Source: Bolinopsis microptera (Eukaryota; Ctenophora; Tentaculata; Lobata; Bolinopsidae). From it: a DNA stretch of 64,000 nucleotides. Below, piece after piece: positions 11,755 to 61,835 of the stretch (position 1 is the stretch's first letter; every line of letters starts with the position of its first letter). The notes beneath the pieces are model-generated. The model had not been told where the DNA came from, ran no database searches, and was given only the letters and a program-made list of their open reading frames with translations. The stretch covers positions 15,261,337-15,325,336 of the forward strand of contig NC_087080.1 of the NCBI RefSeq assembly GCF_026151205.1, in the 5' to 3' direction. Position numbers and translations under genes: made by a program.

Positions 11755-14178
11755 ACTTAGTTTATAGTTGCTAATCATTTCCGGTTTATTTATTGCTGTT
11801 GTATTTTTACTTTTTTCTTGTCGTTTCTATATTGTACTTTTCTATTTTTGATGTTGCAACAGGACGTGCAGTGCTGTTTTTGTTGAAATCGTGTGTCGAG
11901 GATTCCCTGGGCCCGTTTCAGAATTGAAGCAGCACACTCTCTTGGATCATCCTCGTGACAAGTAGATAGAGTCAGTCTTAAAGGGTCACAGTTAGAAGCA
12001 GTGAAAAAATCAGCTTATAGCATAACTTTTAAGTGGGACTAGGGCAGTTAGAAGCGAACACAAAGTGGCTCTCTTGTCAACCACCGCGAGTGGTATAGGA
12101 AGTGGCTCAAGACGGAACTCGGACCATCTTTTAGCAAGTGGTGATGTCAACGGTATCCATAAGGCATTTCTCGTTCATAAGGCGGGCAATGCCTTTAAAA
12201 AGTCAAAAGGTAATTTTAGATTAGCACCACCCGTACACAAAATTAGGAGCGTTTATTTTTCCGTGAAATATGAAATGATATTAATTACGAACCCAAGTGA
12301 AAGGCTGGAAAGTACAGTGCAGAAGCCTCCAAATCACAAATTGTTCAATTCAGATCAGTTCGATTTAAATAATATTGTCCGTTACTGTGCCCACAGATTT
12401 ATTTATCCCTACGACACGCGATTTTCCTTTTATAAATCTTCGGCAGAATTAAAATACACACCGGTGGTAAACTATATGTGGAGGCGACTGTGATCAAAGC
12501 CGTTTTAAACAAATAGTTTTAGAATCTATCTAAGGGCGCTCCCATGCGCCGATAAGTTCTGGTGCTATAAACTTAGTTTATAGTTGCTAATCATTTCCGG
12601 TTTATTTATTGCTGTTGTATTTTTACTTTTTTCTTGTCGTTTCTATATTGTACTTTTCTATTTTTGATGTTGCAACAGGACGTGCAGTGCTGTTTTTGTT
12701 GAAATCGTGTGTCGAGGATTCCCTGGGCCCGTTTCAGAAGCGAAGCAGCACACTCTCTTGGATCATCCTCGTGACAAGTAGATAGAGTCAGTCTTAAAGG
12801 GTCACAGTTAGAAGCAGTGAATAAATCAGCTTATAGCATAACTTTTAAGTGGGACTAGGGTAGTTAGAAGCGATCACAAAGTGGCTCTCTGTTCAGCCAC
12901 CGCGAGTGGTATAGGAAGTGGCACAGGACGGAACTCGGAGCATCTTTTAGCAAGTGGTGATGTCAACGGTATCCATAAGGCATTTCTCGTTCATAAGGCG
13001 GGCAATGCCTTTAAAAAGTCAAAAGGTAATTTTAGATTAGCACCACCCGTACACAAAATTAAGAGCGTTTATTTTTCCGTGAAATATGGAATGATATTAA
13101 TTACGAACCCAAGTGAAAGGCTGGAGAGTACAGTGCAGAAGCCTCCAAATTGTTCAATTCAGATCAGTTCGATTTAAATATTGTCCGTTACTGTGCCCAC
13201 AGATTTATTTATCCCTACGACACGCGATTTTCCTTTTATAAATCTTCGGCAGAATTAAAATACACACCGGCGGTAAACTATATGTGGAGGCGACTGTAAT
13301 CAAAGCCGTTTTAAACAAATAATTTTAGAATCTATCTAAGGGCGCTCCCATGCGCCGATAAGTTCTGGTGCTATAAACTTAGTTTATAGTTGCTAATCAT
13401 TTCCGGTTTATTTATTGCTGTTGTATTTTTACTTTTTTCTTGTCGTTTCTATATTGTACTTTTCTATTTTTGATGTTGCAACAGGACGTGCAGTGCTGTT
13501 TTTGTTGAAATCGTGTGTCGAGGATTCCCTGGGCCCGTTTCAGAAGCGAAGCAGCACACTCTCTTGGATCATCCTCGTGACAAGTAGATAGAGTCAGTCT
13601 TAAAGGGTCACAGTTAGAAGCAGTGAATAAATCAGCTTATAGCATAACTTTTAAGTGGGACTAGGGCAGTTAGAAGCGAACACAAAGTGGCTCTCTTGTC
13701 AACCACCGCGAGTGGTATAGGAAGTGGCTCAAGACGGAACTCGGACCATCTTTTAGCAAGTGGTGATGTCAACGGTATCCATAAGGCATTTCTCGTTCAT
13801 AAGGCGGGCAATGCCTTTAAAAAGTCAAAAGGTAATTTTAGATTAGCACCACCCGTACACAAAATTAAGAGCGTTTATTTTTCCGTGAAATATGGAATGA
13901 TATTAATTACGAACCCAAGTGAAAGGCTGGAGAGTACAGTGCAGAAGCCTCCAAATTGTTCAATTCAGATCAGTTCGATTTAAATATTGTCCGTTACTGT
14001 GCCCACAGATTTATTTATCCCTACGACACGCGATTTTCCTTTTATAAATCTTCGGCAGAATTAAAATACACACCGGTGGTAAACTATATGTGGAGGCGAC
14101 TGTGATCAAAGCCGTTTTAAACAAATAATTTTAGAATCTATCTAAGGGCGCTCCCATGCGCCGATAATTTCTGGTATT
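11755..14178 (+). repeat. three tandem copies of an ~806 bp unit, Helitron-like 3' end
   Basis: Unit starts (AACTTAGTTTATAG) are at about 11755, 12571 and 13377. The units are nearly identical. Copies 2 and 3 share a 7 nt and a 3 nt deletion relative to copy 1. Every unit ends with GGCGC-TCCCAT-GCGCC (5 bp stem, 6 nt loop), then 8 nt, then CTGG and T. After copy 3 the similarity stops exactly after CTGGT. A short hairpin followed at about 10 nt by CTRR|T is the 3' terminus expected of Helitrons, and head-to-tail multimers are expected from rolling-circle transposition. No Rep/helicase is present, so this would be non-autonomous. The 5' end is not diagnostic. A simple satellite array is the alternative. 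Confidence 0.6.
12065..12493 (+). pseudogene. open frame inside tandem unit, copy 1; no ATG
   Basis: Copy 1 keeps a 142-codon open frame with no ATG near its start (first usable codon GTG; upstream in-frame TAA at about 12023). It contains ASGDVNGIHKAFLVHKAG and ends in NYMWRRL. In copies 2 (12881-13177) and 3 (13687-13983) the 7 nt deletion truncates the frame at about 98 codons. Copy 2 differs by non-synonymous changes near the start. The protein is not recognised. The missing start and the frame-breaking indel argue for non-coding sequence or a decayed captured exon. Confidence 0.3.
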
Positions 14179-21585: not shown

Positions 21586-21907
21586 GTCATGTCACAGGTG
21601 TAACAGTGTGCTTGAAGCCTTATGACGTTTTATATGACTTCTTCTACTCGTTTTAACAGCTGTGTAAGTATACGGAGCCTAGAATTGAGTAGCGAATCCA
21701 GCAACCATGATCAAGGTACAGTAGGCGTGTTCCAAGAGTGCTTACTATAGTCATATCATAATATGTTGCTAATCTTTATTTCTTGAGGATTCTTAGTTGT
21801 GACCTTCTCTTGCATTTTCATGGTTATGTATCAGAACTGTACCAAATGTAGACGGTGCTTAATCTATATGATAACAAGTTCTTGCAGATCCCTCTCTCAC
21901 CATCTGC

Positions 21908-22135
21908 AATACTTACGTAGTAGTTGCAATACTTATGTATAGTAGCAATACTTACGTAGTAGTTGCAATACTTACGTATTAGTTGCAATACTTACGTAGT
22001 AGTTGCAATACTTACGTATTAGTTGCAATACTTACGTAGTAATTGCAATACTTACGTAGTAGTTGCAATACTTACGTAGTAGTTGCAATACTTACGTAGT
22101 AGTTGCAATACTTACGTATAGTAGTAGTTGCAATT
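21908..22135. repeat. 20 bp minisatellite, about 11 copies
   Basis: The unit CTTACGTAGTAGTTGCAATA is repeated head to tail, with variants TACGTATT and TATGTATAGTAG. Each unit carries the palindrome TACGTA. Confidence 0.95.
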
Positions 22136-25373: not shown

Positions 25374-27035
25374 GTAACATATCAATCACGTGGTCTCGTA
25401 CAACCGGATTTTAGTTTTACATTATACTATTATATAACTTCAGATAACCTCACATTTCACTGCATCTCATGAACATTATAGCATTACCATAACATCATCA
25501 TGCCACTGCCATAACATCACCATGCCACTATCATAATAATTAAACCGTGGTATAACATGATGATAATATTTTGTAACACTTATAATATATAGGCAACAAT
25601 ATGGTTGATGATGAATCATGATGTTTGCTACTCAAGTACAATAACACAATGTTAGCTGAATGTATCACTGTAACACTGCATGTTACAGTGTTACAGTGAT
25701 ATCACTGTAACACTGTTAGGAAGAGTGCAAATGAGTACTGCAGCAGAAGGATAGAGAAATAATTATTTCGCTTTGCTGGAATATAGTTATAATTTGAGGA
25801 ATAAAGAAAGAAAAATAATAAATTAAAATTCATTAGACGCACAATTGCACTAATCGATCAGCTTAAGCTGCAGAGGAACAAACCAAACTGTAGACTTAAT
25901 CTCTCTCAATTTAGATTGCCGCTTTAACAGGGTAGTTCATTTTAACTAAAATCCAGGTCGACTTTAGAGCCAGTGTCCGTGTTTGACAGGTCCGTGTGGG
26001 TTCTTTGTTAGATCGAGCAGTGCTATACCTTTCAGTGTAATGATAAGAGATTTTAGTGCAATCTAAGGTCTGATCAGTGCTTTTTGAGATGTCGCGACGT
26101 AAAATGCAGGGTTTGCGTTTAAATCACGTAAGAAATCTATACTAAATGATCATTTTTTTGAACATTTAAAATATAATTTGGAACATTACAGTAACGTTAT
26201 TCAAATCTCAAACAGAAAAATGTAATATTATTGACTTAGCTTCAGGAGCCTGTTTGACACCAATAACATATTTCTGTTTACAAGTCATTCTTTAGTGAAT
26301 CATTTGCATCGTAAAACGTTAAAGTTCAAGTTTTACATTGTATCTTCCCACACCCAAGCAGACTTACCAACGATTAGAAGTAAGAGGTGACAAACATGCT
26401 AAAGATCAACTCTTCCATCCGTAAAGTCGACCAACATTTTGGTATAGAGGCGACAACCGTGCGAGACATCAGCAAGATCGAAAAAAACCTCTATAGAAAC
26501 CATATAACATTCAGATTTCAGACCCCCCTGTACTTCAGTCTTGAAACCTTCATTGAGACGTCCAGTAACAGACAACTGGGATCAAGCCACTTACACCTGG
26601 TTCAAGTCTAAACGCGAGAAAGTTGGAGTATTCATCAAGATTCTTGGTAATGTCGCAAAAGAAGATTACATAAGAAACTTTTGGGGAGTATCACATGTTA
26701 GTTATCTCAATAATAGAGGGATAGTCTACCAGTCTACATTTAGTACAATTACATTGTTATAAACTGATTTAACTGAGGAATCGTAACTACTTAACATTTA
26801 CTGTAAGCAATTCGCACACAATGACGATGGAAACAACCAACCAGCGCGTGAACCCACCATTATTCAACGTGAAGAGTGAAGAGTCTAATCAATTAACCCT
26901 ATTAGATTGCTGCCGATATCCATTACACAGCTGTTACATAGCTGTTACATACCTGTTGCATCCATGTTACATAACCGCCGGTATCAGTTTTAACAGCGCG
27001 GCTCAGACCACTGCACATAAAAGGCAGTGTGGACC

Positions 27036-47919: not shown

Positions 47920-50900
47920 ATGAACGAAGGAATCCCTGTCAGAACATTTAAACAGTCAATCAACTCTGAGGGGAGCGAGTATGAGGTAGGTCAACAGTGA
48001 ACAGAGTAATGAGAAGTTTCACTCCGCATACGTTCTCTCAGACTTGCAGTAACAAAATAATCCCTGTTATTCCAGTCGGAATCAGATTCTCCTTCATCAT
48101 TTTACATCCATACCATTATCAGAATTATACACAAAAGCTTTGTAAGTATCGGTGCTCAACGTAGGTTATTCAAACTCCCTCAATTCAAGCTTAACCAACC
48201 CTTACCATCCGCAGGAGGATGTACCGGAGATAGGGATGGTACCTGCTTTCATCATGTCCATAAACTTCATCATCGGAGCCGGGTTCTTCTCCATGCCCTA
48301 CGTGTTCTACCACGGGGGTATAATGTGGGGAGCTATGACTCTAATTTTAGTAACATTGACCCTTGTTATTACTAGTAATTGGACCCTGGAAACTTGCTCC
48401 AGAGCACAGGTAACTGCTATTTTTATAAACTTTTCTTATTTATTTGATATTCCAGCAACGTACAAAACATATTATGTACATTGTACAGTCAAAATTTTTC
48501 GAAGTTTTCGAACTGAGGATGTTTCGAATAAAAATTCGATCAGCGAGAATTTATCATTATTATAATTACATCCTCGTGATGGCTAGAAATTTATATGTAT
48601 CTATTAATGCTTTTCAAACAAAGTTACAACGAATTCTTCATGTAGTGCATCCTGGGTTTGGACAGGATATGTCCGTTTAAAATATTTCCATCACGTTACA
48701 TTACATAATTCTCAATAAATGTAATAGCTTTGTAGTGTTGTTATTAGTTTAAAACTGTGTTTTAAAACTGTGTTTTAACCACTGTGTTTTAACCAGGCTT
48801 TAGACACAGTGATCAGAGAATCGGATATTCCAGATCTCAACTTCCATGACGTCTCCATCGTTGGTAGAAGGTACGTCCTAACGTCTTAACAACTATTTAA
48901 TAACTAATCAGTACTCAGTAGGTCAAAAGTTTTAATTATAACTAATCCGTAATCAGTAGGTCAAATGATGGATAGTTGATGCCCCTACTTTCAAGTTTCA
49001 TAGTTCGAAATTTTTATACGGTCCAGTCTTTTAAAATGTTTTTTTTTGTAGGTTTACTCTGGCCATCAACTCAAACTGCCTATCGCGCGATATAACGAAT
49101 TCTATTTTCTTATTTAATTTAATTAATTGATTTATTCTGCTGAGTATATAAGTTTTATCTTAATAGTGGTGTTACTTAAACTTAGATTTTTATTATTCCT
49201 ACAGGAATAACACCTTTGGTAGTGTCAACTCAAGGACCAGACTGTTAAAGCCTAAATATGAGATAACAGCTGCCAGGAAGTTTGAGTTTACAGAGCTGAT
49301 GGAGGTATTCTTTGGGAAACCCGGCCGGATTATTACTGCTTCTTTGATTATTGTGAGTTTTCTGTATCGGTTGGATTATTACTGCTTCTTTGATTATTGT
49401 GAGTTTTCTGTATCGGTTGGAATATTACTGCTTCTTTGATTATTGTGAGTTTTCTGTATCGGTTGGAATATTACTGCTTCTTTGATTATTGTGAGTTTTC
49501 TGTATCGGTTGGGTTATCACTGCTTCTTTGATTATTGTAAGTTTTCTGTATCGGTTGGAATATTACTGCTTCTTTGATTATTGTGAGTTTTCTGTATCGG
49601 TTGGAATATTACTGCTTCTTTGATTATTGTGAGTTTTCTGTATCGGTTGGATTATTACTGCTTCTTTGATTATTGTGAGTTTTCTGTATCGGTTGGAATA
49701 TTACTGCTTCTTTGATTATTGTGAGTTTTCTGTATCGGTTGGAATATTACTGCTTCTTTGATTATTGTGAGTTTTCTGTATCGGTTGGAATATTACTGCT
49801 TCTTTGATTATTGTGAGTTTTCTGTATCGGTTGGAATATTACTGCTTCTTTGATTATTGTGAGTTTTCTGTATCGGTTGGAATATTACTGCTTCTTTGAT
49901 TATTGTAAGTTTTCTGTATCGGTTGGAATATTACTGCTTCTTTGATTATTGTGAGTTTTCTGTATCGGTTGGAATATTACTGCTTCTTTGATTATTGTGA
50001 GTTTTCTGTATCGGTTGGATTATTACTGCTTCTTTGATTATTGTGAGTTTTCTGTATCGGTTGGAATATTACTGCTTCTTTGATTATTGTGAGTTTTCTG
50101 TATCGGTTGGAATATTACTGCTTCTTTGATTATTGTGAGTTTTCTGTATCGGTTGGAATATTACTGCTTCTTTGATTATTGTAAGTTTTCTGTATCGGTT
50201 GGAATATTACTGCTTCTTTGATTATTGTAAGTTTTCTGTATCGGTTGGATTATTACTGCTTCTTTGATTATTGTGAGTTTTCTGTATCGGTTGGATTATT
50301 ACTGCTTCTTTGATTATTGTGAGTTTTCTGTATCGGTTGGAATATTACTGCTTCTTTGATTATTGTGAGTTTTCTGTATCGGTTGGAATATTACTGCTTC
50401 TTTGATTATTGTGAGTTTTCTGTATCGGTTGGAATATTACTGCTTCTTTGATTATTGTAAGTTTTCTGTATCGGTTGGAATATTACTGCTTCTTTGATTA
50501 TTGTAAGTTTTCTGTATCGGTTGGATTATTACTGCTTCTTTGATTATTGTGAGTTTTCTGTATCGGTTGGAATATTACTGCTTCTTTGATTATTGTGAGT
50601 TTTCTGTATCGGTTGGAATATTACTGCTTCTTTGATTATTGTAAGTTTTCAGTATCGGTTGGAATATTACTGCTTCTTTGATTATTGTGAGTTTTCTGTA
50701 TCGGTTGGAATATTACTGCTTCTTTGATTATTGTGAGTTTTCTGTATCGGTTGGAATATTACTGCTTCTTTGATTATTGTGAGTTTTCTGTATCGGTTGG
50801 ATTATTACTGCTTCTTTGATTATTGTGAGTTTTCTGTATCGGTTGGAATATTACTGCTTCTTTGATTATTGTGAGTTTTCTGTATCGGTTGGATTATCAC

Positions 50901-53900
50901 TGCTTCTTTGATTATTGTGAGTTTTCTGTATCGGTTGGAATATTACTGCTTCTTTGATTATTGTAAGTTTTCTGTATCGGTTGGATTATTACTGCTTCTT
51001 TGATTATTGTGAGTTTTCTGTATCGGTTGGATTATTACTGCTTCTTTGATTATTGTGAGTTTTCTGTATCGGTTGGATTATTACTGCTTCTTTGATTATT
51101 GTGAGTTTTCTGTATCGGTTGGATTATTACTGCTTCTTTGATTATTGTGAGTTTTCTGTATCGGTTGGATTATTACTGCTTCTTTGATTATTGTGAGTTT
51201 TCTGTATCGGTTGGATTATTACTGCTTCTTTGATTATTGTGAGTTTTCTGTATCGGTTGGATTATTACTGCTTCTTTGATTATTGTGAGTTTTCTGTATC
51301 GGTTGGATTATTACTGCTTCTTTGATTATTGTGAGTTTTCTGTATCGGTTGGATTATTACTGCTTCTTTGATTATTGTGAGTTTTCTGTATCGGTTGGAA
51401 TATTACTGCTTCTTTGATTATTGTGAGTTTTCTGTATCGGTTGGAATATTACTGCTTCTTTGATTATTGTGAGTTTTCTGTATCGGTTGGATTATTACTG
51501 CTTCTTTGATTATTGTGAGTTTTCTGTATCGGTTGGATTATTACTGCTTCTTTGATTATTGTGAGTTTTCTGTATCGGTTGGAATATTACTGCTTCTTTG
51601 ATTATTGTGAGTTTTCTGTATCGGTTGGATTATTACTGCTTCTTTGATTATTGTGAGTTTTCTGTATCGGTTGAGTTATTACTGCTTCTTTGATTATTGT
51701 GAGTTTTCTGTATCGGTTGAGTTAAGTTAGAAAGTGGACGAATCTCATTTGGAGCTCTGTTCCGCTGAGTAATTTTAATAAATTCACGTTTTTTCTGTAT
51801 CATGACGATTATTAATCGCAACTAAATGATTCATCAATAAATTATTGGTTTTACATAGTTAATTGTCTAAAACTAATTTTTCTTTAGGTATACCTGCTGG
51901 TTACGCTATGTGCATACGCTACAATATTCGCTTCTACCTGGTCTCTGGTAATACCGTACAATACCTCCATCCACTCTCTCGGCCTGTGTAATCTATCTGA
52001 CTACGAGGGGCTGCTACCTGGGGGAGACTGTCTCAACTCTTACAGGCAATTAAAACTAATTAATTAATTAAGTTAATTAATTAAATAAAGTAACTACTAA
52101 TTTACTAACTGACAGGCAAGTAATTACTTTCCATTTAAGTTATGACAGATCTTCTGAATCGCAGAGGGCTAAAGTGAATGAAGTACAACTACATGGTGAT
52201 AAGTTGTGCATGTTTTCTTTCTATTTCTGTATCAGACTACCAGAAATACTGCTGACACGCTTTGTCTCCTCAGATTTTCAGTCTTGATATTTGCGTGCAT
52301 AGTGATACCAATATCAGCCATGGACGTGAGCACTATGAAGCCCTTCCAGATAGCTCTTAGCTTTATCATGCAGGTAAAAAGTAAAATCTTCTTTAGAAAT
52401 AAGATTGATAGATCATAATAAAGGGTTCGCTGTACTTCATTGCACTTCTTTAGTGTTTAACAGCTTATATAAATATTATTATTATATTCGAATTAGAGAA
52501 TTAGAGGTTGGAGCTGTATATATCCTTGGAGAACCCGGTGGATGTCCTTGCTGTACGGCAGTGTTAAACAAGGAACTGAAACCGAGGGGTTCCGTTCAGG
52601 CCCTTCACACTTTGTTTCTGTCTAGTTCTTATGTACCGTCACAATAGTGACTTTAATATATTAAATTTTTTCAGTTCACAATAGGTGTAGGTATAATACA
52701 CTGTATATACGGGCTCGCTACGGGTAACATTGCCGACGGTGAGCATCAACCCCATCCTACACGCTTTTTCGCCTTTGATTTCACAAGTAAGATTTATTTT
52801 TTTCAATGTTTTAAAGTCGACGCTTGATAATATATATTATACATAAGTTTAAATAAATATCTTTGGTGTTCTACTATAAAATCTAACTCGATGAATATCC
52901 AATATTTAGCTTTTGCACCAAAACCTCGCACAATTACAACTATAGGGTGTACCACAGAAAGTGTGATTTTTTGAGAAATGATACAAAATATCATGAAGGA
53001 GCAGTTGCTAAAAACTCTTCATCACATTGTGTCAATATATTGTGTCGAAAAACTATTAAAGTGGAAGAAATTCACACTTTGTGGTACACCCTGTATACCC
53101 ACTACCCAGGTTTCGTGAACATGGTACCGATTGTGGTATACTCCCAAGTTCTACACGAGGGTATCCCCATGATAGCGCAACCTGCCCGGGACAAGAAAAA
53201 TCTACACAAGCTGTTCGCTGGTGCCCTGTCTTTCGCTTGTAAGTCTTAACTTTACTTGTCAGTTTGTTCGCTGGTGCCCTGTCTTTCGCTTGTAAGTCTT
53301 AACTTTACTTGTTTGCATGTTGTATCGCATTATTTCACGGGACCTGTGACTTTAATGATATCAGTGACTGATATATATTTGGCGTATGTTCTAAAATTAG
53401 ACCAAATTTCCTGATATCTCCTCAAGTATCACATTTGAGTTCAACGGAAAAAATAAAGTGAAAATTACATTACTCGTTATCTTATCTCTGCTATCATGAC
53501 AGGCTTTATGTAATTTATTGCTTTAAACTTCAAGCAGACTGTCATCACGCTTCACCTTACCAAGGGCTTTACTTTCATTTGAAATTCGGAAAAAGAAAAG
53601 AGTTCTCTTTAGATATTTGAAGTTCCATTTCTAATGATACTGGGTGCGCCATCGTGGATTTTCTAAACCTTTATCTGCTATGATGAAGCCTTGTGCCGTT
53701 GTTATTTTTTAAAATTTATTAAGATAAGACTAAAAAAGTACTAAAGTTCGTGTTGAAGTGCCATGCATCGCATTCCACGCCCTCGGCCTCATGTGAATAT
53801 TAAATAATCAACAAGGCCTTTTATCCTGTCGATTACGTGACACTGTCGCAAATAGAATTTAAGTCACACAAGCTGTTTCCAGTGCAAGTCAGTGACGATA

Positions 53901-56900
53901 TAACGTTATTATTGAGCCGGGACAAAATGCTGCCTTTTAGTTCGATACAATTTCGAATCGACCAGATATCTTGGTTAAGGATTTCCTTATTCTAAATCAT
54001 GCAGACTGTTGAATGCTCTACTTCTCGTCGCCAGGAACGCGCATTCAAAATCCTTGGTAGATGGCTGTTTTTCTGTTTTACACAGGAGAGCAATGGAACC
54101 GTCTTATGATACGATTTTACAACGGTTTTCGGACGACCACGCGCCAAACTCCTAACTAAGCCGTTTTGATTAAGCAACCACTAACCTCCACAATCAAGAT
54201 TTCTAGAGTAGACCCCGTGCGTTTCAGTCACTCTGTCCCCGTATCTCTTCCTTTTTAGGTAGCACTTTTGACCATAATTCTGCATTAAACCCACGGACTT
54301 ACAGTCGTCAGTTTCGCTGCATTTTGACAAGCAGTCCATCATGGAAGGTGAATTCGCTATCCAGGATATATCGTTTCCATAGAAATCAGTATCCTTCTTC
54401 GTGCATATATCTTGTGTAAAATATAAGTTATTTATCCAATTTTGAGCTATGATTGAACGAAATACCAATAAATTCTAATTTACATCAAATTAATATATTT
54501 TTTCCTTACCGTAAAACGGATCATTCGAAGATGGTGGCGGCATAAACACCAGCATGATGAATACATGACAAATTTTCTCCATCGTCTTGGGACTTGGTTG
54601 CTATTTGTAAGGAAGATAAATTAGAGTATTGTCTCTAAAAGCCATAAAAAGCCACTACAGAGAAATCTTGCATAGCTGAACGTATAAATTATATGATGGT
54701 TCACCATGACATTTCCGATTTTGATGTCAAAGTAAGATCTTCTTTAACAAGATCTTCTTGTTTAAGCCTGCATAACCAATTTAAACAAATGAGCAAGACT
54801 GTGTACTATAATAGGGGGAAGCCAAGGGGTATTTTGGGGTATTATGGGGATTGGGGAATGGCTTAATGGATTTTGGAAATCCCCCATAATAAAGTCCCCA
54901 TAATACCCCAAAAGTACCCAAAATTATTGTAAATATTCATCGTGGCCAACTGTTTATGTTTTTCACGAACCAGTTTCAGTCCATCGTTCAGTGCATGTTT
55001 TAGTTGAAATTTAAGTCTGCCTAGATTATAAATTAGAGCAAAAAAACATATTTTTTAGACTCAACAGCCAAATTTCTGAACTGTTCCTCTGCTCATGCTT
55101 ATGACTTATAGTTTTTAAATTATTATATTCCCCTTTATATCCACCAGCGGGCTATATTTTGTCTTCTGACCTCTCGCAGCCCGATGTAACAAGACACAGT
55201 GCGCGTCCAGCCCGCTTAAAATACAGCACGCGAGCAGATGATACTTAAAGTGACAAGTAACAATACAGCCCGGAGCACTTTCACTTTCAAACAAATTTTT
55301 GGGGCCTAAACTATTAAACTTTAACTATAACAAGACACGTACACCATATTTATGTCACTAACACTACATCTTAATGGTTCCCACGGCTCAAGGAATGCAC
55401 TACCTATATCACTTATCGGCCTCAGTCCCTATACCACGCAGTGCAATATGATTGGCTGACATTGAACACGTGACGTGTTACCATGGTTGCAACAATTAGT
55501 GGCGACTTTAAGTCTAGAGTTGATGTTTATACAGTATACACCATACACGCCCCATTGTTTATTTCAACTGATTTCCATTTCCATAATTGCTCAAGCTATT
55601 TCGAGTAATAATTCTTGAAATTTTAGGCCGGAATTTTACGTGTAATTCTATTGTGTTCCCGAAAGAAATTTTGCCCTGTTTTTTGTTTTGAAACTATACC
55701 GTCTACTACTAATATTGATGTGATGAATTTGATCTTTTACTCAACGTAAAATATATATAATATATATTCAATGTCCCTTCGTGCTTCGTTATCTTGAGCT
55801 CTCTTGGTAACTGCAGATGGCATTCAGTTTATAGTTACACAGTTGTTAAAGTTATGCCGAGCACTCTTTTTGATAGTTTAAGCTGAATTTATTGTTTGAC
55901 CGGCCCTACACACTGTGTACTGATTAACTCTCATTGTACATCTGACGTGTTGTCATGGTAACAGGAATTCTGTGTTACTCGTAGTATGGATTGACGGAGA
56001 TACACAATTTTTAATCTATGTTAATGATTAACATCCCGTTGACTGTTCATCAATTTGGTTGGTGTGTAATACCATTATAGTACGTGGGATTTCAATTCTT
56101 CTATTGTGTTATATAATCAGTAATGTTGCCCTGTTCTGCATCTTACACCAAAGGCTAAAGCATGATTTTCTATTAAATTTGCAGCTTTAGTTCGAAATCT
56201 TTTACTTCTATTTGCTATGATTGTTGAAAACTGTAAAGCGCCCGCTCATGGATATACACGATATCATTCCTCGCCATGAGGGCGGAACTATCGTATAGCA
56301 CTCGGGCCCGTTGGGCCCTCCGTGCTATACGAAAATATCTCCGCCTCGGGCTAGCGCCCTCGTGGAGATATAAAATATTGCACGCGCACGCGCGTGCAAT
56401 ATTTAGTACCGCCCTCAAGGCTGCGGTGATATCTATATATACTCATGGATCAGGTAACATTCCCGTCTAAAACATTTTAGCCCCGGGGCCGGGTTAAAGA
56501 ATTGGAATACCTCAAGGAACCGATCGGAAACAAATTTGGCTTGGGTAGAAATTGTAACTATGGAGTATGATGCAGTTTTGCGCAATCGACCACGCTTTTT
56601 TTGGCGCTTTTGCGACTTCGAAATAAAACTTTGGCCTCTGATTAAAGTCAAAAGCCACACTTGGGCATAAAGATATCCAGCATTATCACATTTAGGGGTG
56701 TACAGCATAATTAGGACATTTAGGGGTGTACAGCATAATTAGGACATTAGTTATGAGGCTGCACCTATTTGCACTCTCGTGATAATATTAATAGCAATTA
56801 CAGCACTTTAAATCAAAATAACTCGGTTTCTGATTGGAGTTAAGAGCTTAAATTGGGCAGTTAAATGATCATACTGAGTTTCAACGGGGTAAAGGCATCA

Positions 56901-59900
56901 GGCTGTCGAATTAATAGACCAAAAGCTTGTAAATAGACCAAAAGCTTGCAAATTTCATCATCTAGAAAAGCCAGTTTTTGTCAAGGCAACAGCTCCAAGT
57001 TGGCGTTTTCAATATTGCAACGCGAGTAATCTCGCTGCTAGGCCTAGGGTAGGCGAGGCTATGACATTATTGTGCTAATCCCCTGGGGCTCTTAAAAGGA
57101 TAGGGGGGGGGGGCTCATGTTTTGTGTCTGTTTTTGTACGTGCGGTACCCTATATTTTCAAGACGGACAAAAAATACGGCGGACAAAAATGGACAAAAAA
57201 TGTTATGGAAATAACATTTCGATGCTTCTTTTCTACACCGATTAGACTCATGCTTATCAGTTATCAGTACTAGCAGGAACCCGTCTAACTCTAAAGTGGT
57301 GTTCAGCAGATTAAGAGCAAATGGGAGGTGAATGACAGAGGAACCTATATCGATAGAACTAGAAGTAGAACAGGCAACTATGTAAAGAAGAGTTGACAGA
57401 TTTCGTTTTTTTGTGTGGACGAAATATCTCAAAGCTAGACAGTTTTCTGGCAGTCCGATCACAAAGCAGGCAAAGAACCCGAACGCTAGTCGCTAGCAAG
57501 CCATCATAAATTCTGTACTGAGTAGTTTCCAGGATCGAAGTCTCATTCATCCTAAAACTTATAATTAGCGTAGCTTGAATCAATATATGGAAAGTTTCTT
57601 GGACTACTTTATCACAAACGTATGTTAAGACCTTTAAGTACTGAATAAAACCGATAATTATTTAAAGCTGTGGCTCACTGGTAACTTTTCTGTATTTATA
57701 ACCTAAGACACCGGTATAAACGGTATAGTAATAAAATAATTAATGAGGGAACAACTCATAAGCCGGGGCAGGGTGCGCTAATAGACCGCGTTGTTAAGAT
57801 CTGTAATGTACGTGATTAAAGGCACGTGATTACAGTGATAACTGTTGATTGACCCTTTCAGATCGTAGAGGTCTGCAACACATGCTCGCTTTGCATATGC
57901 ATTGTTTTTATCTCGCTATGACTATAATAATAAAGTAATAAGAAATTTAAACTATTAAAGTCACTAGCAGGAACCCGTCTACCCTAAAGTGGTGTCAAGA
58001 CTCGAGAGAATAAAATAATTATTACCTATTTAATTCGCGTTTTTGACACCACTTGGGAGTCCAAATTTTGGGCACTAAAATTATTATTCCTTGGCCAATT
58101 TTTAATTTTTTCATGCTGATTTGAAGGCCATTAAGGCATTTGACCCAGTCAAAAAAGTTTCAGTTGTATATCTTTTACGGTTTTTGCGGAAAGTTGCGTT
58201 AAAGTTGATGCCGTGGTGTCAGTAAAATGGCACGGATATATACATACATATATATCGTCTCGCTTTATATATAGTAAGATGTCCGTAGCCCGCTCGTCGC
58301 ACGTGTATTGATTATGAGTAATTAAACCGATCACAAAGCAGGCAAAGAACCTGAACGCCAGCAAGCCATCAGAATTTCTGTACTGAGTAGTTTTAGGTGC
58401 ATTTTTACCGTTTAATGCTGTTTCCCTATAGGTAAGTGACAGTATTGTTTGTAAAATGAAGGATTATATGATTCATTAAAATTTGAAGGGAGTAACCGAG
58501 GATCTTATATAGCTGGTGTAGCGGCTAGCGATAACTTGCTATAACTTGCGATAACATTTGGCAATTGACTTATTCGACTGAAAACTGTGAAGGGTTAGGA
58601 GATTATTGTATGCTGTAAAGTAGTGTATTTATAACGTTATAACCATGTGTACCCACTAGGAGCGTTCCACATGCTCGGGAAGTAGCGCACTTGGATGATG
58701 CTACCATGACGTTGGTCATTGGTGGCCCTGTTAACGAGCGTTGCTAAGCACCGCGGACTTGTTAACGAGCGTTGCCAAGCACCGCATGCGCCTCAGATAA
58801 CAATTTGTAGTGCAGACCATTGTTTGTAGTGCAGACCATTGTAGAATGTAGATCTTATGTATAAGATCATTACAGAGGCTCTTATATGATTATGCTCTTA
58901 TCATAATCACGTGAACTGCAACTCACCATCAGCAAAAAGTATAGATCACTACGATATTGTACGTGATGACGCGTCATAGCAATACAAACAATCCAATGTC
59001 ACTAATCCAATGTCAGTTGAGCTATCTCGGGAAACTAGAAGAATTCACTAGTTAAGTATGACGTTACAGTTAGTCCAAATAGAAGAGACAAATAAAACCA
59101 CAAAAACCACAAAGATCATGCTTTGATGGCTGCTACTATAGTATTTCAGGTGCGTTCTAAGACAAGTGTGCAGCTACTGTAGTATTTCAGGTGCGTTCTA
59201 AGACAAGTGTGCTACTGTACTATTTCAGGTACGGTCTATCTGACCTTTTCAATCCTGACAGCTCTGAGATTCCGGGAGGATGTGGCAGCCACTGCTTCTC
59301 TTAACTGGGCAAGTTTTGAAAATTCACAATAATTATTAATTGTGATGGATGGTTATAATAAACAATCAAATGGTCTTTCTGTCCTTGAACACATTTAAGA
59401 GTAATCAGTAAATAGACTCATCGACGGATGGTTAACTAATAGTAATGATTATTTCAGAACGTCACCAGACAACCTGGAAATCCGATGCTGATCCGTATGA
59501 TCAGCTATCTTATCATGTTGACACCGAGTGTAGTTGTGTGCAGCGCCTACCCTCTGTGTGTCATCACCATGGTCGCCAACCTTGGTCTTCTTATCACCGG
59601 TTAGTAATATCTTGGATACCAAATTCCAACCTTCCCCTTATTACCTATATATCACCCTTGGAGCATATCACCCTTGGAGCCAGCCTCTTTCCCCACAATC
59701 ATTTATTTATTGCCCTGGCCCTGTTGCTATCAAACTATAGTGCTAATAACAGCATAACGAACTAATTTTCCAGGACGCGATTTGAGCACGGACCCGAAGT
59801 ACAAGAATAAACTGAAGCTTGTCGGTTGTTTCATTTCTATAATTCCTATCAGTGGTGCTCTTTTCATCTCAAATCTGAAGACTCTCTCAAAATATGCAGG

Positions 59901-61835
59901 TATCTAAATCTAATGAACTGTTGAATAATGGATTGTGAAATATTTTTAAATGGCAGCCATGTCCACATTCATCAGCAAAATTCCAAATCTCCAATGAAGG
60001 GTTTTACGGGTTTAAGTGAGTCTTCCGAACTCAAACACTAAAATAGTTAATCTACAGGTCTGATAGCATTCCTGTTAATAGGGTTCATCCCGATCATGCT
60101 TCAAGTTCAGAGCAGAAGGAAGTGCAGGAGAGTGTTCGGTAGAGTAGACGCGTGGATTGAGAAGAGCATTTCTGCTAGTTTGTCTTTCCGGGAAGAGGAC
60201 CGGATGCAGCTGCTGGACAAATACGCTAAGGTATTTGCAATTCTTTATTTAACTTTTATCACTTCTCATAAATGACATTTGCAATTAAACGGATGTCGAG
60301 CTTGGTGAAGCGATGGAGTATAGACATACGGGTAAATGCCTCACAGAATGGCTAGCCTCACAGAATGGCCAAATTTGTAAATGTTTTTGTAACTAATTTT
60401 TTATAAAAGACTGGTAGGTTTTGTGGATACCATATGAAACAAAAGTCTTCTGGCAACACTTCCTGTGGTGAAATCATTAACTAGGACCACATTTTCTGGC
60501 ATAAATATGACTGTTTATGTAGAAATTTTGAGCACTGAAAAATTTGTTTTCAAATTTTTGAACTAAGTTTACATTTTGGTGAGAACTTCTGGCACCAGTA
60601 TGACAGAAGATGTTCAAAGAATAGTATTCATCAAACAAAACGAACATTGTTCAATATAGGAAGAAAAAAATGCTAAAATGGCTACACGCCTCACAAAATG
60701 GCCAAAATATGCCTCACAAAATTTGTTTTCAAATTTTTGAACTAAGTTTGCATTTTGGTGAGAACTTCTGGCACCAGTATGACAGAAGATGTTTAAAGAA
60801 TAGTATTCATCAAACAAAACGAACATTGTTCAATTTAGGAAGAAACAAAATGTTAAAATGGCTAAACGCCTCACAAAATGGCCAAAATATGCCTCACAAA
60901 ATGGCCAAAATTTAAAACTCCTTTTATTCAATGAAACCATAAGTCTAAAGTATTCACAAGCTATTTATCATACAATAACACCCCAGATGGAGTGTTTTTA
61001 CAGCCGAATGAAGGTTATAAATCATGAAATCAGGGAATATGAACAACGCCACACAAAATGGCCATTTTTGGTGTAGGAAATTATGCCCTTTTTATTCAGT
61101 TCTAAGAAATTTCACCTATATAGGGGTGTTAACAAGGCATATTAATACCAGCAGCATGCCTGAAACAAGAGCCAAAGGTTTTAGAAAAATAAAATTTTCT
61201 CGTTTTCTTTTTTTTTTGCCATTTTGTCAGGCATTTTTTCTTTTTTGTGAAATAATTTTTCACAGCTCAGTTTTTTCGTGAGTTTTAGGTTATTACCCCA
61301 TTCCTTAATAGGTTTTCTAAGAACGTGTGGTGATAGAAATTTAAAAAGTATCTCCATCAACAAAATTATAGAAATTCAGATTTAGCCATTCTGTGAGGCA
61401 TGTTTTTTTGGAGGAAGATTTTCCGGCCAATTTTTCTCAAAGAAAAAATGGTTATGAGATTAAATGAACCCCCGGGAAGAAAAATATGAGTGTCAACTTA
61501 GCTTCTTATGAGATAAAAACTAGAATAAAGTGTGTTTTGTGACTTTGAGAGACCTTCCTTTTTTTTGGCCATTCTGTGAGGCAAATACCCGTAGTCTAAT
61601 TAATCTGTGTTAGTGTTACTATATTTTCTCGACCAATAATAGCAGTAACATGTATGCTATAATACTGATACAGTGTACGATTATTGAAAACCCCCCTCAG
61701 TTGCGTGACGTCATGACAATGACACCGTACTACAGTTCCTGGTGGAGCCGGACCTGGGTGGTTGCCGTGGTTACCGTCATTTGTACTCTCCTCTTCATTC
61801 TGGGAATCATATCTGCGTTCTCTGTTGCGCACTAA
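47920..61835 (+). CDS. AAAP-family amino acid transporter, 14 exons
   Basis: A multi-pass transporter of the amino acid/auxin permease superfamily (relatives of SLC32/36/38). Substrate is unknown. Exons: 47920-47985, 48076-48141, 48215-48409, 48797-48870, 49205-49352, 51888-52045, 52274-52373, 52675-52786, 53110-53238, 59229-59308, 59458-59599, 59774-59899, 60058-60230, 61701-61835. All phases join and give 567 aa. TM1 has the family look (FIMSINFIIGAGFFSMPYVF). Later come RKFEFTELMEVFFGK, AYATIFASTWSLVIPYN, HEGIPMIAQPARDKKNLHKL and a C-terminal helix WVVAVVTVICTLLFILG, for about 11 helices. A CTTTCAG acceptor lies 1 nt before the ATG. Exon 2 (47920/48076 linkage) is the least certain. Introns 6 and 10 appear to start with GC. 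Exon 5 ends in a large donor array, and intron 9 (6 kb) hosts an antisense gene. Confidence 0.85.
48749..48796 (+). repeat. tandem ACTGTGTTTTAA repeats ending at the exon 4 acceptor
   Basis: Three copies of AACTGTGTTTTAA (the last two with CC) lead directly into the acceptor AACCAG of transporter exon 4, so the pyrimidine tract and splice site are part of the repeat. Confidence 0.75.
49328..51724 (+). repeat. 46 bp x ~52 array carrying copies of the exon 5 5' splice site
   Basis: The last ~24 coding nt of exon 5 (ATTATTACTGCTTCTTTGAT plus TATT) and its donor GTGAGTTTTCTGTATCGGTTGG form one unit that repeats head to tail. Donor-like GTGAGT/GTAAGT sites recur every 46 bp from 49353 to 51699 (51 steps). 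The units differ mainly at AATATT/ATTATT, GTGAG/GTAAG and a few single bases. Only the first donor keeps the reading frame into exon 6. Extension hits TGA in the third unit, and use of donor 2 shifts exon 6 into a stop. Confidence 0.95.
52941..53097. mobile_element. 157 bp MITE, family 1 (copy 2), ending 12 bp before an acceptor
   Basis: The left end TATAGGGTGTACCACAGAAA and the right end (reverse complement TATACAGGGTGTACCACAAA) form inverted termini. The inner sequence matches the fragment at 3292-3398. It lies in transporter intron 8, and its right terminus (GTACACCCTGTATA) occupies the pyrimidine-tract region just before the exon 9 acceptor CCACTACCCAG (AG at 53109). Confidence 0.85.
53214..53311 (+). 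repeat. 53 bp tandem duplication of exon 9 end plus donor
   Basis: TTCGCTGGTGCCCTGTCTTT and CGCTTGTAAGTCTTAACTTT followed by ACTTG occur at 53214 and again at 53267. Each copy contains 25 nt of exon and an identical GTAAGT donor (53239 and 53292). Use of the second would read GCT TGT AAG TCT TAA and stop. Confidence 0.9.
54181..54582 (-). CDS. small secreted PAN/apple-domain protein, nested antisense gene
   Basis: Two exons on the minus strand inside transporter intron 9. Exon 1, 54582-54510, encodes a signal peptide (MEKICHVFIMLVFMPPPSS) and ends in phase 1 before GTAAGG. Exon 2, 54410-54181, begins after ACACAAG and encodes one domain ending NLDCGG*. The product is about 100 aa. After the leader there are six cysteines (residues 27, 51, 55, 61, 74, 98) in the PAN/apple pattern, with DCLSKC, DDCKSVG and the typical CYLKRKR strand. 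PAN domains bind proteins or carbohydrates, so an extracellular adhesion or recognition role is likely but unproven. An AG lies 18 nt before the ATG. A donor-like GAG|GTTAGT overlaps the stop, so the gene could continue. AATAAA on the minus strand lies near 53.72 kb. Confidence 0.75.
54829..54925. mobile_element. small foldback MITE
   Basis: The left arm GTATTTTGGGGTATTATGGG and the right arm CCCATAATACCCCAAAAGTA pair after a ~50 bp centre that also contains CCCCATAATA. It is in transporter intron 9, upstream of the antisense gene. No target duplication was identified. Confidence 0.65.
56247..56447. repeat. multi-branched hairpin element
   Basis: An imperfect outer stem (56247-56285 with 56409-56447, CATGAGGGCGG against CCGCCCTCA..G) encloses three consecutive strong hairpins. 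These are 56291-56332 (TCGTATAGCAC with GTGCTATACGA around GGGCCC-GTT-GGGCCC), 56335-56371 (ATATCTCC with GGAGATAT) and 56375-56403 (AATATTGCACGCG palindrome). It folds like a cloverleaf of ~200 nt. GC-rich stems in an AT-rich intron suggest a foldback-type element. The short frames on both strands here mirror each other and are not genes. Confidence 0.7.
57455..57535. repeat. ~75 bp direct repeat, second copy at 58328-58395
   Basis: CCGATCACAAAGCAGGCAAA with the following CCATCA..TTCTGTACTGAG and AGTAGTTT recurs about 870 bp downstream with small deletions. A shorter pair (ACTAGCAGGAACCCGTCTA, at about 57269 and 57963) lies in the same intron, suggesting one diverged local duplication. Confidence 0.75.
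59131..59228 (+). repeat. triplicated 3' splice site before transporter exon 10
   Basis: CTACT.TAGTATTTCAGGTGCG and GTTCTAAGACAAGTGTG occur twice, then CTACTGTACTATTTCAG|GTACGGTC opens exon 10. The acceptor AGs are at 59149, 59190 and 59228. From the upstream acceptors the frame reads TGT GCG TTC TAA, a stop, so only the third gives the full protein. Confidence 0.85.
60321..61598. mobile_element. 1.28 kb element with ~32 bp inverted termini in the last intron
   Basis: The left end TAGACATACGGGTAAATGCC plus TCACAGAATGGC matches the reverse complement of the right end (TAGACTACGGGTATTTGCCT...). The interior contains several GCCTCACA(A/G)AATGGCC words in both orientations and a ~178 bp tandem duplication (about 60541-60715 and 60720-60895). 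No transposase was recognised. The short frames inside are repeat-rich. It is probably a non-autonomous DNA transposon. Superfamily and target duplication are unresolved. Confidence 0.75.

What the first reader, a model, noticed from the sequence alone, without database searches (positions are those of the whole stretch)
49328..51724. A 46 bp x 52 array multiplies an exon end and its 5' splice site
Every unit contains the last ~24 nt of transporter exon 5 plus a GTGAGT/GTAAGT donor, giving 52 near-identical candidate donors spaced 46 bp apart. Because 46 is not a multiple of 3 and the third unit contains an in-frame TGA, only donor 1 makes the full protein. This is either a remarkable decoy array that the spliceosome must resolve in favour of the first site, a repeat-length-tunable poison-splicing switch, or a young expansion that is tolerated because the 5'-most donor wins. 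I know of no described family like it.
Basis: partly seen in the sequence, partly recalled or inferred. Interest (0 to 1): 0.85.

Follow-up and report, generated by a model that had tools for sequence, protein, structure and literature searches.

The report
Exon end copied 52 times
In a comb jelly gene for a predicted amino-acid transporter, the end of one exon and its splice signal stand 52 times in a row, and only the first copy can give the full-length protein; splicing likely uses just that first copy and the other 51 are probably tolerated intron filler, a kind of repeat already described in human genes.

Summary
A 46-bp unit (26 nt of exon tail plus 20 nt of intron starting GTGAGT or GTAAGT) stands 52 times at 49327-51718, at the end of coding exon 4 of a Bolinopsis microptera Aa_trans gene (LOC134820452). 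Only donor 1 gives the annotated 545-aa protein; donor 2 gives 210 residues, donors 3-52 give 189. Two genome searches found no second locus. Without the 51 extra units the intron would be 189 nt, not 2,535. Best reading: a minisatellite seeded at the border and tolerated because the donor nearest the exon's own 3' splice site likely wins. A second, unrelated gene (activin-receptor-like, L041) has the same build: at least 27 donors, only the first open. The claim that nothing like it is described is wrong: human IFI6 and CBS repeats and human boundary repeats are precedents. Nothing I saw supports a poison switch. Counts that first suggested a genome-wide excess of donor-bearing arrays did not stand up to further control words. 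In two verified genes donors look about as open to tandem duplication (2 of 21) as random positions (about 7-9%), unlike exon interiors (1 of 432 positions); that sample is small and biased by the finding itself.

The parts
49205..49352 (+). Coding exon 4 of the Aa_trans transporter gene; ends ...ASLII at donor 1
   Evidence: splice; identical to P0001; acceptor tcctacag
49327..51718 (+). 46-bp x 52 minisatellite; each unit = 26 nt like the exon tail + 20 nt of intron start
   Evidence: no second locus found
49353..49358 (+). Donor 1 (ATT|GTGAGT), the only one of 52 that gives the full 545-aa protein
49399..51704 (+). Donors 2-52, spaced 46 nt; 43 GTGAGT and 8 GTAAGT; each gives a premature stop
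49437..49439 (+). TGA in the exon-4 reading frame, inside unit 3; ends any product of donors 3-52
49353..51887 (+). Intron 4, 2,535 nt; 189 nt if the 51 extra units are left out
51888..52045 (+). Coding exon 5 (VYLLV...), phase-0 partner of donor 1
53212..53312 (+). Second border repeat in the same gene: end of coding exon 8 plus donor CTT|GTAAGT, 53 bp x 1.9; the first donor fits the annotated protein
59129..59248 (+). Acceptor-side repeat of the same gene: TATTTCAG|GT region of coding exon 9 in three copies (41 and 38 bp apart), the last one diverged; the last acceptor fits the annotated protein
   Evidence: (95% and 68% identity to the first copy)

Best explanation
A 46-bp minisatellite made of the last 26 nt of coding exon 4 plus its 5' splice site stands in 52 copies at this exon-intron border, and splicing likely uses only the first donor because it is the one nearest the exon's own 3' splice site. 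Shown: the array, its position, that no second locus was found, and that donor 1 alone gives the annotated protein. Inferred: it began as one tandem duplication across the border and grew by ordinary minisatellite turnover; under exon definition each extra copy falls into the intron, so a coding-sequence copy, a new donor and a stop codon stay nearly silent, and the intron grows from about 189 to 2,535 nt. Donors 2-52 would be inert decoys rather than a switch. Donor choice can hardly rest on near sequence: donor 1 and donor 2 are identical for 26 nt upstream and 23 nt downstream, and 8 later donors carry the consensus-like GTAAGT.
For: Array and frame facts. Exon end. No second locus. Minisatellite-rich background: arrays with units of 10 bp or more cover 10.0% of the window and 10.6% of a 200-kb sample (20 x 10 kb, all from contig C1). 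Tandem copies (85% of 26 nt, within 300 nt) at 2 of 21 protein-verified donors and 0 of 21 acceptors (the diverged exon-9 acceptor falls below the cut), against 268 of 3000 random window positions, 220 of 3000 sample positions and 1 of 432 exon-interior positions. A second gene with the same build: L041 (C1:13000001-13010000), activin-receptor-like (PF01064, E 2.2e-4), at least 27 donors CCACCTG|GTRAG, only the first open, intron 1,016 nt of which 857 lie between first and last donor; three relatives (97, 77 and 73% identity; 3 of the 9 hits were looked at) read through that junction. In the four border repeats whose junction was checked against a protein (donor 4; donor 8 and acceptor 9, which are one junction; the L041 donor, against relatives) the exon-side copy is the one that fits. 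Minigenes with two identical donors used the upstream one exclusively under exon definition (PMC9225289, section 8 read).
Against: No transcript was seen: P0001 is an NCBI protein whose RNA support I could not check, and a full-length protein shows that donor 1 is used, not how often. The four cases are survivors: repeats whose intron-side copy was used would be lost. 16 of 21 verified introns here are shorter than 540 nt, where intron-side choice could prevail, and the last donor lies 189 nt from the acceptor. P0001 is 'isoform X2', so other isoforms exist and were not seen. The 2-of-21 rate is biased upward, since the window was chosen for one of the two.
Confidence: 0.72

Rival explanations
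1. Length-tunable poison switch: a share of transcripts splices from donors 2-52, gains a premature stop and is degraded, so that repeat number sets transporter output.
For: All 51 other donors give a premature stop, as such a switch needs; locally they are as good as donor 1.
Against: Border copies with a period that is not a multiple of 3 bring stops anyway, so the stops are no sign of design. No truncated product came up as a cluster of its own among the 4 hits, though a 210-aa one was in the length range (it could be hidden in P0001's cluster of 4 members). The unrelated L041 gene shows the same build.
Confidence: 0.08
2. Low-level mis-splicing only (compatible with the best explanation): some transcripts use donor 2 or later by error, giving a mild length-dependent cost without regulation.
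For: IFI6 transcripts use two downstream repeat units as donors (PMC4526556 passage); a paper title ties the CBS repeat to reduced enzyme activity (reference seen).
Against: Identical competing donors gave exclusive use of the upstream one in minigenes; no transcript data here.
Confidence: 0.3
3. Donor-bearing arrays are amplified in this genome because they carry donors (selected or driven, for example by U1 binding or R-loops).
For: GTAAGT three times at 20-50 nt gaps: 17,645 matches against 3,157 for the word read backwards; CAGGTAAGT three times: 447 against 0. In the 264 kb in hand: 29 GTAAGT triples against a mean of 6.9 for 90 permutations, rank 9; at score cut-off 10, 4 sampled units against a mean of 1.37 in 30 random draws, none reaching 4; donor-like sites of score 10-12 with a tandem copy 31 of 105, from 5 places only.
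Against: Further control words span the same range: GATTGA 1,599 (some of them GATT runs) and AGTTAG 21,486; CATGGAAGT 0 and TGAAGGTAC 187. Counted as distinct arrays in 264 kb, 3 carry GTAAGT against a mean of 3.4 for 90 permutations, rank 41; no clear excess at score cut-offs 6 to 9; sites of score 8-10 have a tandem copy in 4 of 258, of 12-14 in 0 of 13.
Confidence: 0.07
4. Assembly artefact: the array is expanded or collapsed by the assembler.
For: Consensus of noisy long reads can misjudge copy number in near-identical repeats (recalled).
Against: Long-read assembly in print; 7 unit types in irregular order with 28 runs, not one unit stamped out; a second array of the same kind in another gene.
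Confidence: 0.05

Closest known systems
Human IFI6 (6-16, G1P3) minisatellite giving multiple splice donor sites (Turri et al. 1995; title in reference lists, paper not held; use described in PMC4526556, passage seen)
   Same: Tandem units that serve as splice donors for one exon.
   Different: There two downstream units are used as donors, giving three mRNAs; here only donor 1 can give the full protein. Unit length of IFI6 (12 nt) is recalled.
Human CBS 31-bp VNTR across exon 13-intron 13, written c.1444_1467+7(16_21) (PMC2630376 and PMC1395315, passages; Lievers et al. 2001 not held)
   Same: Unit spans exon tail (24 nt) and intron start (7 nt); period not a multiple of 3; many copies (16-21).
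   Different: 46-bp unit, 52 copies, a comb jelly; population length variation not known here.
Internal tandem repeats at exon-intron boundaries of human genes in segmental duplications (PMC2812944, passages)
   Same: Repeat-number change at a border alters exon-intron structure.
   Different: Those cases were found by comparing paralogues and can form novel introns; here an existing intron is lengthened.
Intron gain by tandem genomic duplication (PMC4974935 and others, search listing with start of abstract)
   Same: Tandem duplication of exonic sequence with splice signals.
   Different: No new intron: the real acceptor lies past the array and is not a copy of the unit.
Cross-exon proximity rule for competing donors (PMC9225289, section 8 read and passages)
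   Same: Upstream of two identical donors chosen.
   Different: Tested with two donors in transfected minigenes, not with 52 in a natural gene.

Membership tests
Border minisatellites that multiply a splice donor (IFI6/CBS kind) | Tandem unit contains exon tail, donor and intron start | tested here: met
Border minisatellites that multiply a splice donor (IFI6/CBS kind) | First unit is the genuine exon end | tested here: met
Border minisatellites that multiply a splice donor (IFI6/CBS kind) | Copy number varies between individuals | not testable with these tools
   one assembly only
Border minisatellites that multiply a splice donor (IFI6/CBS kind) | Later donors used in some mRNAs (IFI6) | not testable with these tools
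   no RNA data; any such mRNA would carry a premature stop
Poison-splicing (AS-NMD) switch | Alternative junctions bring a premature stop | tested here: met
   51 of 51 other donors
Poison-splicing (AS-NMD) switch | Alternative junctions are used and regulated | not testable with these tools
   no transcripts
Poison-splicing (AS-NMD) switch | Element conserved between species | not testable with these tools
   the tool states that G000 has no relatives held
Intron gain by tandem genomic duplication | Intron ends derive from two copies of the duplicated segment | tested here: not met
   the acceptor at 51887 lies 169 nt past the last unit and is not a unit copy
Dispersed satellite or mobile element | Unit occurs at many loci | tested here: not met
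   only this locus found, besides two single 2-mismatch hits to a 21-nt word

The most novel reading that the evidence does not exclude
This array is one visible case of a genome-wide class: in a genome whose sequence is about one tenth minisatellite, roughly one donor in ten sits in a tandem repeat of its own exon tail, introns lengthen by copying the exon ends beside them, and the spliceosome always takes the exon-side edge (first donor, last acceptor). Comb jellies would then hold a natural series of loci with 2 to 52 or more identical donors that measures cross-exon against cross-intron choice in an early-branching animal.
Probability: 0.35. Interest if true: 0.68.

Novelty: new member of a known kind. 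Interest (0 to 1): 0.47.

Why it matters
Identical donors take local sequence out of splice-site choice. Here cross-exon choice predicts donor 1 and a working transporter; cross-intron choice predicts donor 52, a 189-nt intron and a truncated protein. One long-read cDNA experiment on existing animals decides between them, and the second gene gives a replicate. It also suggests a simple route by which introns grow: border duplications of donor plus exon tail cost almost nothing if the exon-side copy wins.

Tried and rejected
Rejected: genome-wide drive for donor-bearing arrays. The first two counts looked strong, but further control words removed the contrast. The 264 kb in hand is mixed: no excess by distinct arrays, an excess by triples and at the top score bins that comes from a few long arrays. 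Rejected: dispersed repeat family. Rejected: choice of donor 1 by strength (identical near context; 8 later donors are GTAAGT). L040 3894-4033 (67 bp x 2.1, minus strand) looks like another exon end with donor, but its 45-aa exon had no Pfam match, so I do not count it. Of the eight 3-kb loci I looked at six (L003 and L004 lie in the same array as L002) and saw no clear exon end in a repeat. Splice sites of further sampled genes (CNOT1-like L034, sodium/proton-exchanger-like L035; both names recalled from the peptides) were not worked out, so the rate at donors rests on two genes. Literature searches made. For comb jellies, one search (233 papers held 3 of 4 terms, 12 listings seen) listed nothing like this, which is a narrow test.
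Full report
What is there. At 49327-51718 a 46-bp unit stands 52 times, every spacing 46. Each unit is 26 nt like the tail of a coding exon plus 20 nt of intron beginning GTGAGT (44 units) or GTAAGT (8 units). Seven unit sequences occur; two, differing at one base of the exon part, make up 42 of 52, in a mosaic with somewhat fewer runs than shuffled order (28 against a mean of 34.2; 3.4% of 5,000 shuffles as low), as local copying would give. Two searches of the 264.65-Mb genome found no second locus: all 25 scored matches of a two-unit query lie here, and a 21-nt word with up to 2 mismatches gave 52 hits here and two single ones elsewhere.

Gene and species. Splicing eight exons by hand gives a protein 100% identical to an NCBI Bolinopsis microptera protein, LOC134820452 isoform X2, 545 aa, with an 86% relative in Mnemiopsis leidyi and the Aa_trans domain PF01490 (E 2e-12). 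All 545 residues map to 13 coding exons at 47920-61835. The three other hits run through the exon 4-exon 5 junction without a gap. So donor 1 is the productive donor.

Frames. Joined to exon 5 and on, donor 1 gives 545 aa and donor 2 stops after 210 residues in the downstream exons; donors 3-52 stop after 189 at the TGA of unit 3, which lies before donor 3; intron retention stops there too (rows for donors 1-6 and 52 printed, full length for donor 1 only). Donor 1 and donor 2 are identical for 26 nt upstream and 23 nt downstream, so near sequence can hardly explain the choice.

Not a single oddity. In the same gene the end of coding exon 8 with its donor is doubled (53 bp, 53212-53312), and the acceptor region of coding exon 9 stands in three copies, the last diverged (59129-59248); the annotated protein fits the first donor and the last acceptor. 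In a 200-kb sample (20 stretches of 10 kb from one contig) one more large case turned up: in L041 an activin-receptor-like gene (PF01064) ends an exon ...NVGYGEPP at CCACCTG|GTAAGT and then repeats exon tail and donor, mostly at 28 or 31 bp; 27 donors match CCACCTG|GTRAG, others are altered, and only the first gives an open frame into the next exon. Three relatives (97, 77, 73% identity; 3 of 9 hits looked at) read through that junction. In both genes the intron without the extra copies would be short: 189 and 159 nt.

How ordinary is it here? Arrays with units of 10 bp or more cover 10.0% of the window and 10.6% of the sample. With two protein-verified genes (the transporter and a Kv channel, P0014), 2 of 21 donors and 0 of 21 acceptors have a copy of at least 85% over 26 nt within 300 nt, against 268 of 3000 random window positions, 220 of 3000 sample positions and 1 of 432 exon-interior positions. 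The rate at donors is like that of random positions and unlike that of exons. The sample is small, both hits are in the transporter (0 of 9 donors in the Kv gene), and one of them is the finding itself.

Excess of donors in arrays? Whole-genome counts of a word three times in tandem: GTAAGT 17,645, read backwards 3,157, GATTGA 1,599, AGTTAG 21,486; CAGGTAAGT 447, read backwards 0, CATGGAAGT 0, TGAAGGTAC 187. A long array gives many matches, so these are not counts of arrays, and the donor hexamer lies inside the range of its controls; the 9-mer lies above its three controls. In the 264 kb in hand GTAAGT lies in 3 arrays against a mean of 3.4 for 90 permutations (rank 41), while its 29 triples rank 9 of 90. 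Donor-like scores in array units show no clear excess at cut-offs 6-9 and one at 10 (sample: 4 against 1.37); by site, 31 of 105 sites of score 10-12 have a tandem copy, from 5 places, but 4 of 258 of score 8-10 and 0 of 13 of score 12-14. I therefore do not claim that donors drive array growth.

Mechanism. A tandem duplication across the border leaves the first exon tail and donor in place and adds everything else to the intron. If the donor nearest the exon's own acceptor wins, the change is nearly silent. That rule was shown in minigenes with two identical donors, where the upstream one was used exclusively under exon definition (PMC9225289 section 8); the same paper's introduction says that earlier work found the downstream donor preferred across the intron (passage). 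Here the two rules give opposite products, and the intact reading frame implies the exon-side rule. The three donor repeats and one acceptor repeat with checked junctions all fit it, with the caveat that cases breaking it would not survive.

Known or new. IFI6, CBS and human boundary repeats show the same kind of thing (passages); the IFI6 and CBS source papers were not held. New here are the number of donors, the host lineage, and the hint that such borders are common in one genome.

Noticed in passing
L041 8101-8987 (G000:C1, about 13,008,100): Second exon-end-plus-donor minisatellite, in an activin-receptor-like gene, with at least 27 donors and only the first open.
   Followed up: yes
window 53212-53312 and 59129-59248: Intron 8 of the same transporter has a doubled donor at its start and a three-fold, partly diverged acceptor at its end; the exon-side copies are the ones that fit the annotated protein.
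   Followed up: partly
L040 3894-4033 (minus strand): 67-bp x 2.1 tandem repeat that starts inside a possible exon end (LEVCHG|gtgagt).
   Followed up: partly
window 52046 and 59309: Two of the transporter's 12 introns begin with GC (TTACAG|gcaatt, AACTGG|gcaagt) in the protein-matched splice.
   Followed up: no
G000:C8:7268823-7269127: Array of about 37-bp units reading CTTATTTCAG|GTAAGTAGT: an acceptor-like and a donor-like word back to back in each unit, like a zero-length exon of recursive splicing.
   Followed up: no
window 12026-13980: Three blocks about 810 bp apart with near-identical open frames (LLSGTRAVRSEHKVALLSTTASG...), a longer period than TRF was set to find.
   Followed up: no
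window 21905-22122 and 26923-26973: Short arrays that carry donor-like words on the minus strand (TAC|GTAAGT in a 20-bp unit x 11; CAG|GTATGT in an 11-bp unit x 4.6), not tied to a known exon.
   Followed up: no
L041 9393-9569: A 12-bp array begins about 16 nt behind the donor of the next exon of the activin-receptor-like gene.
   Followed up: no
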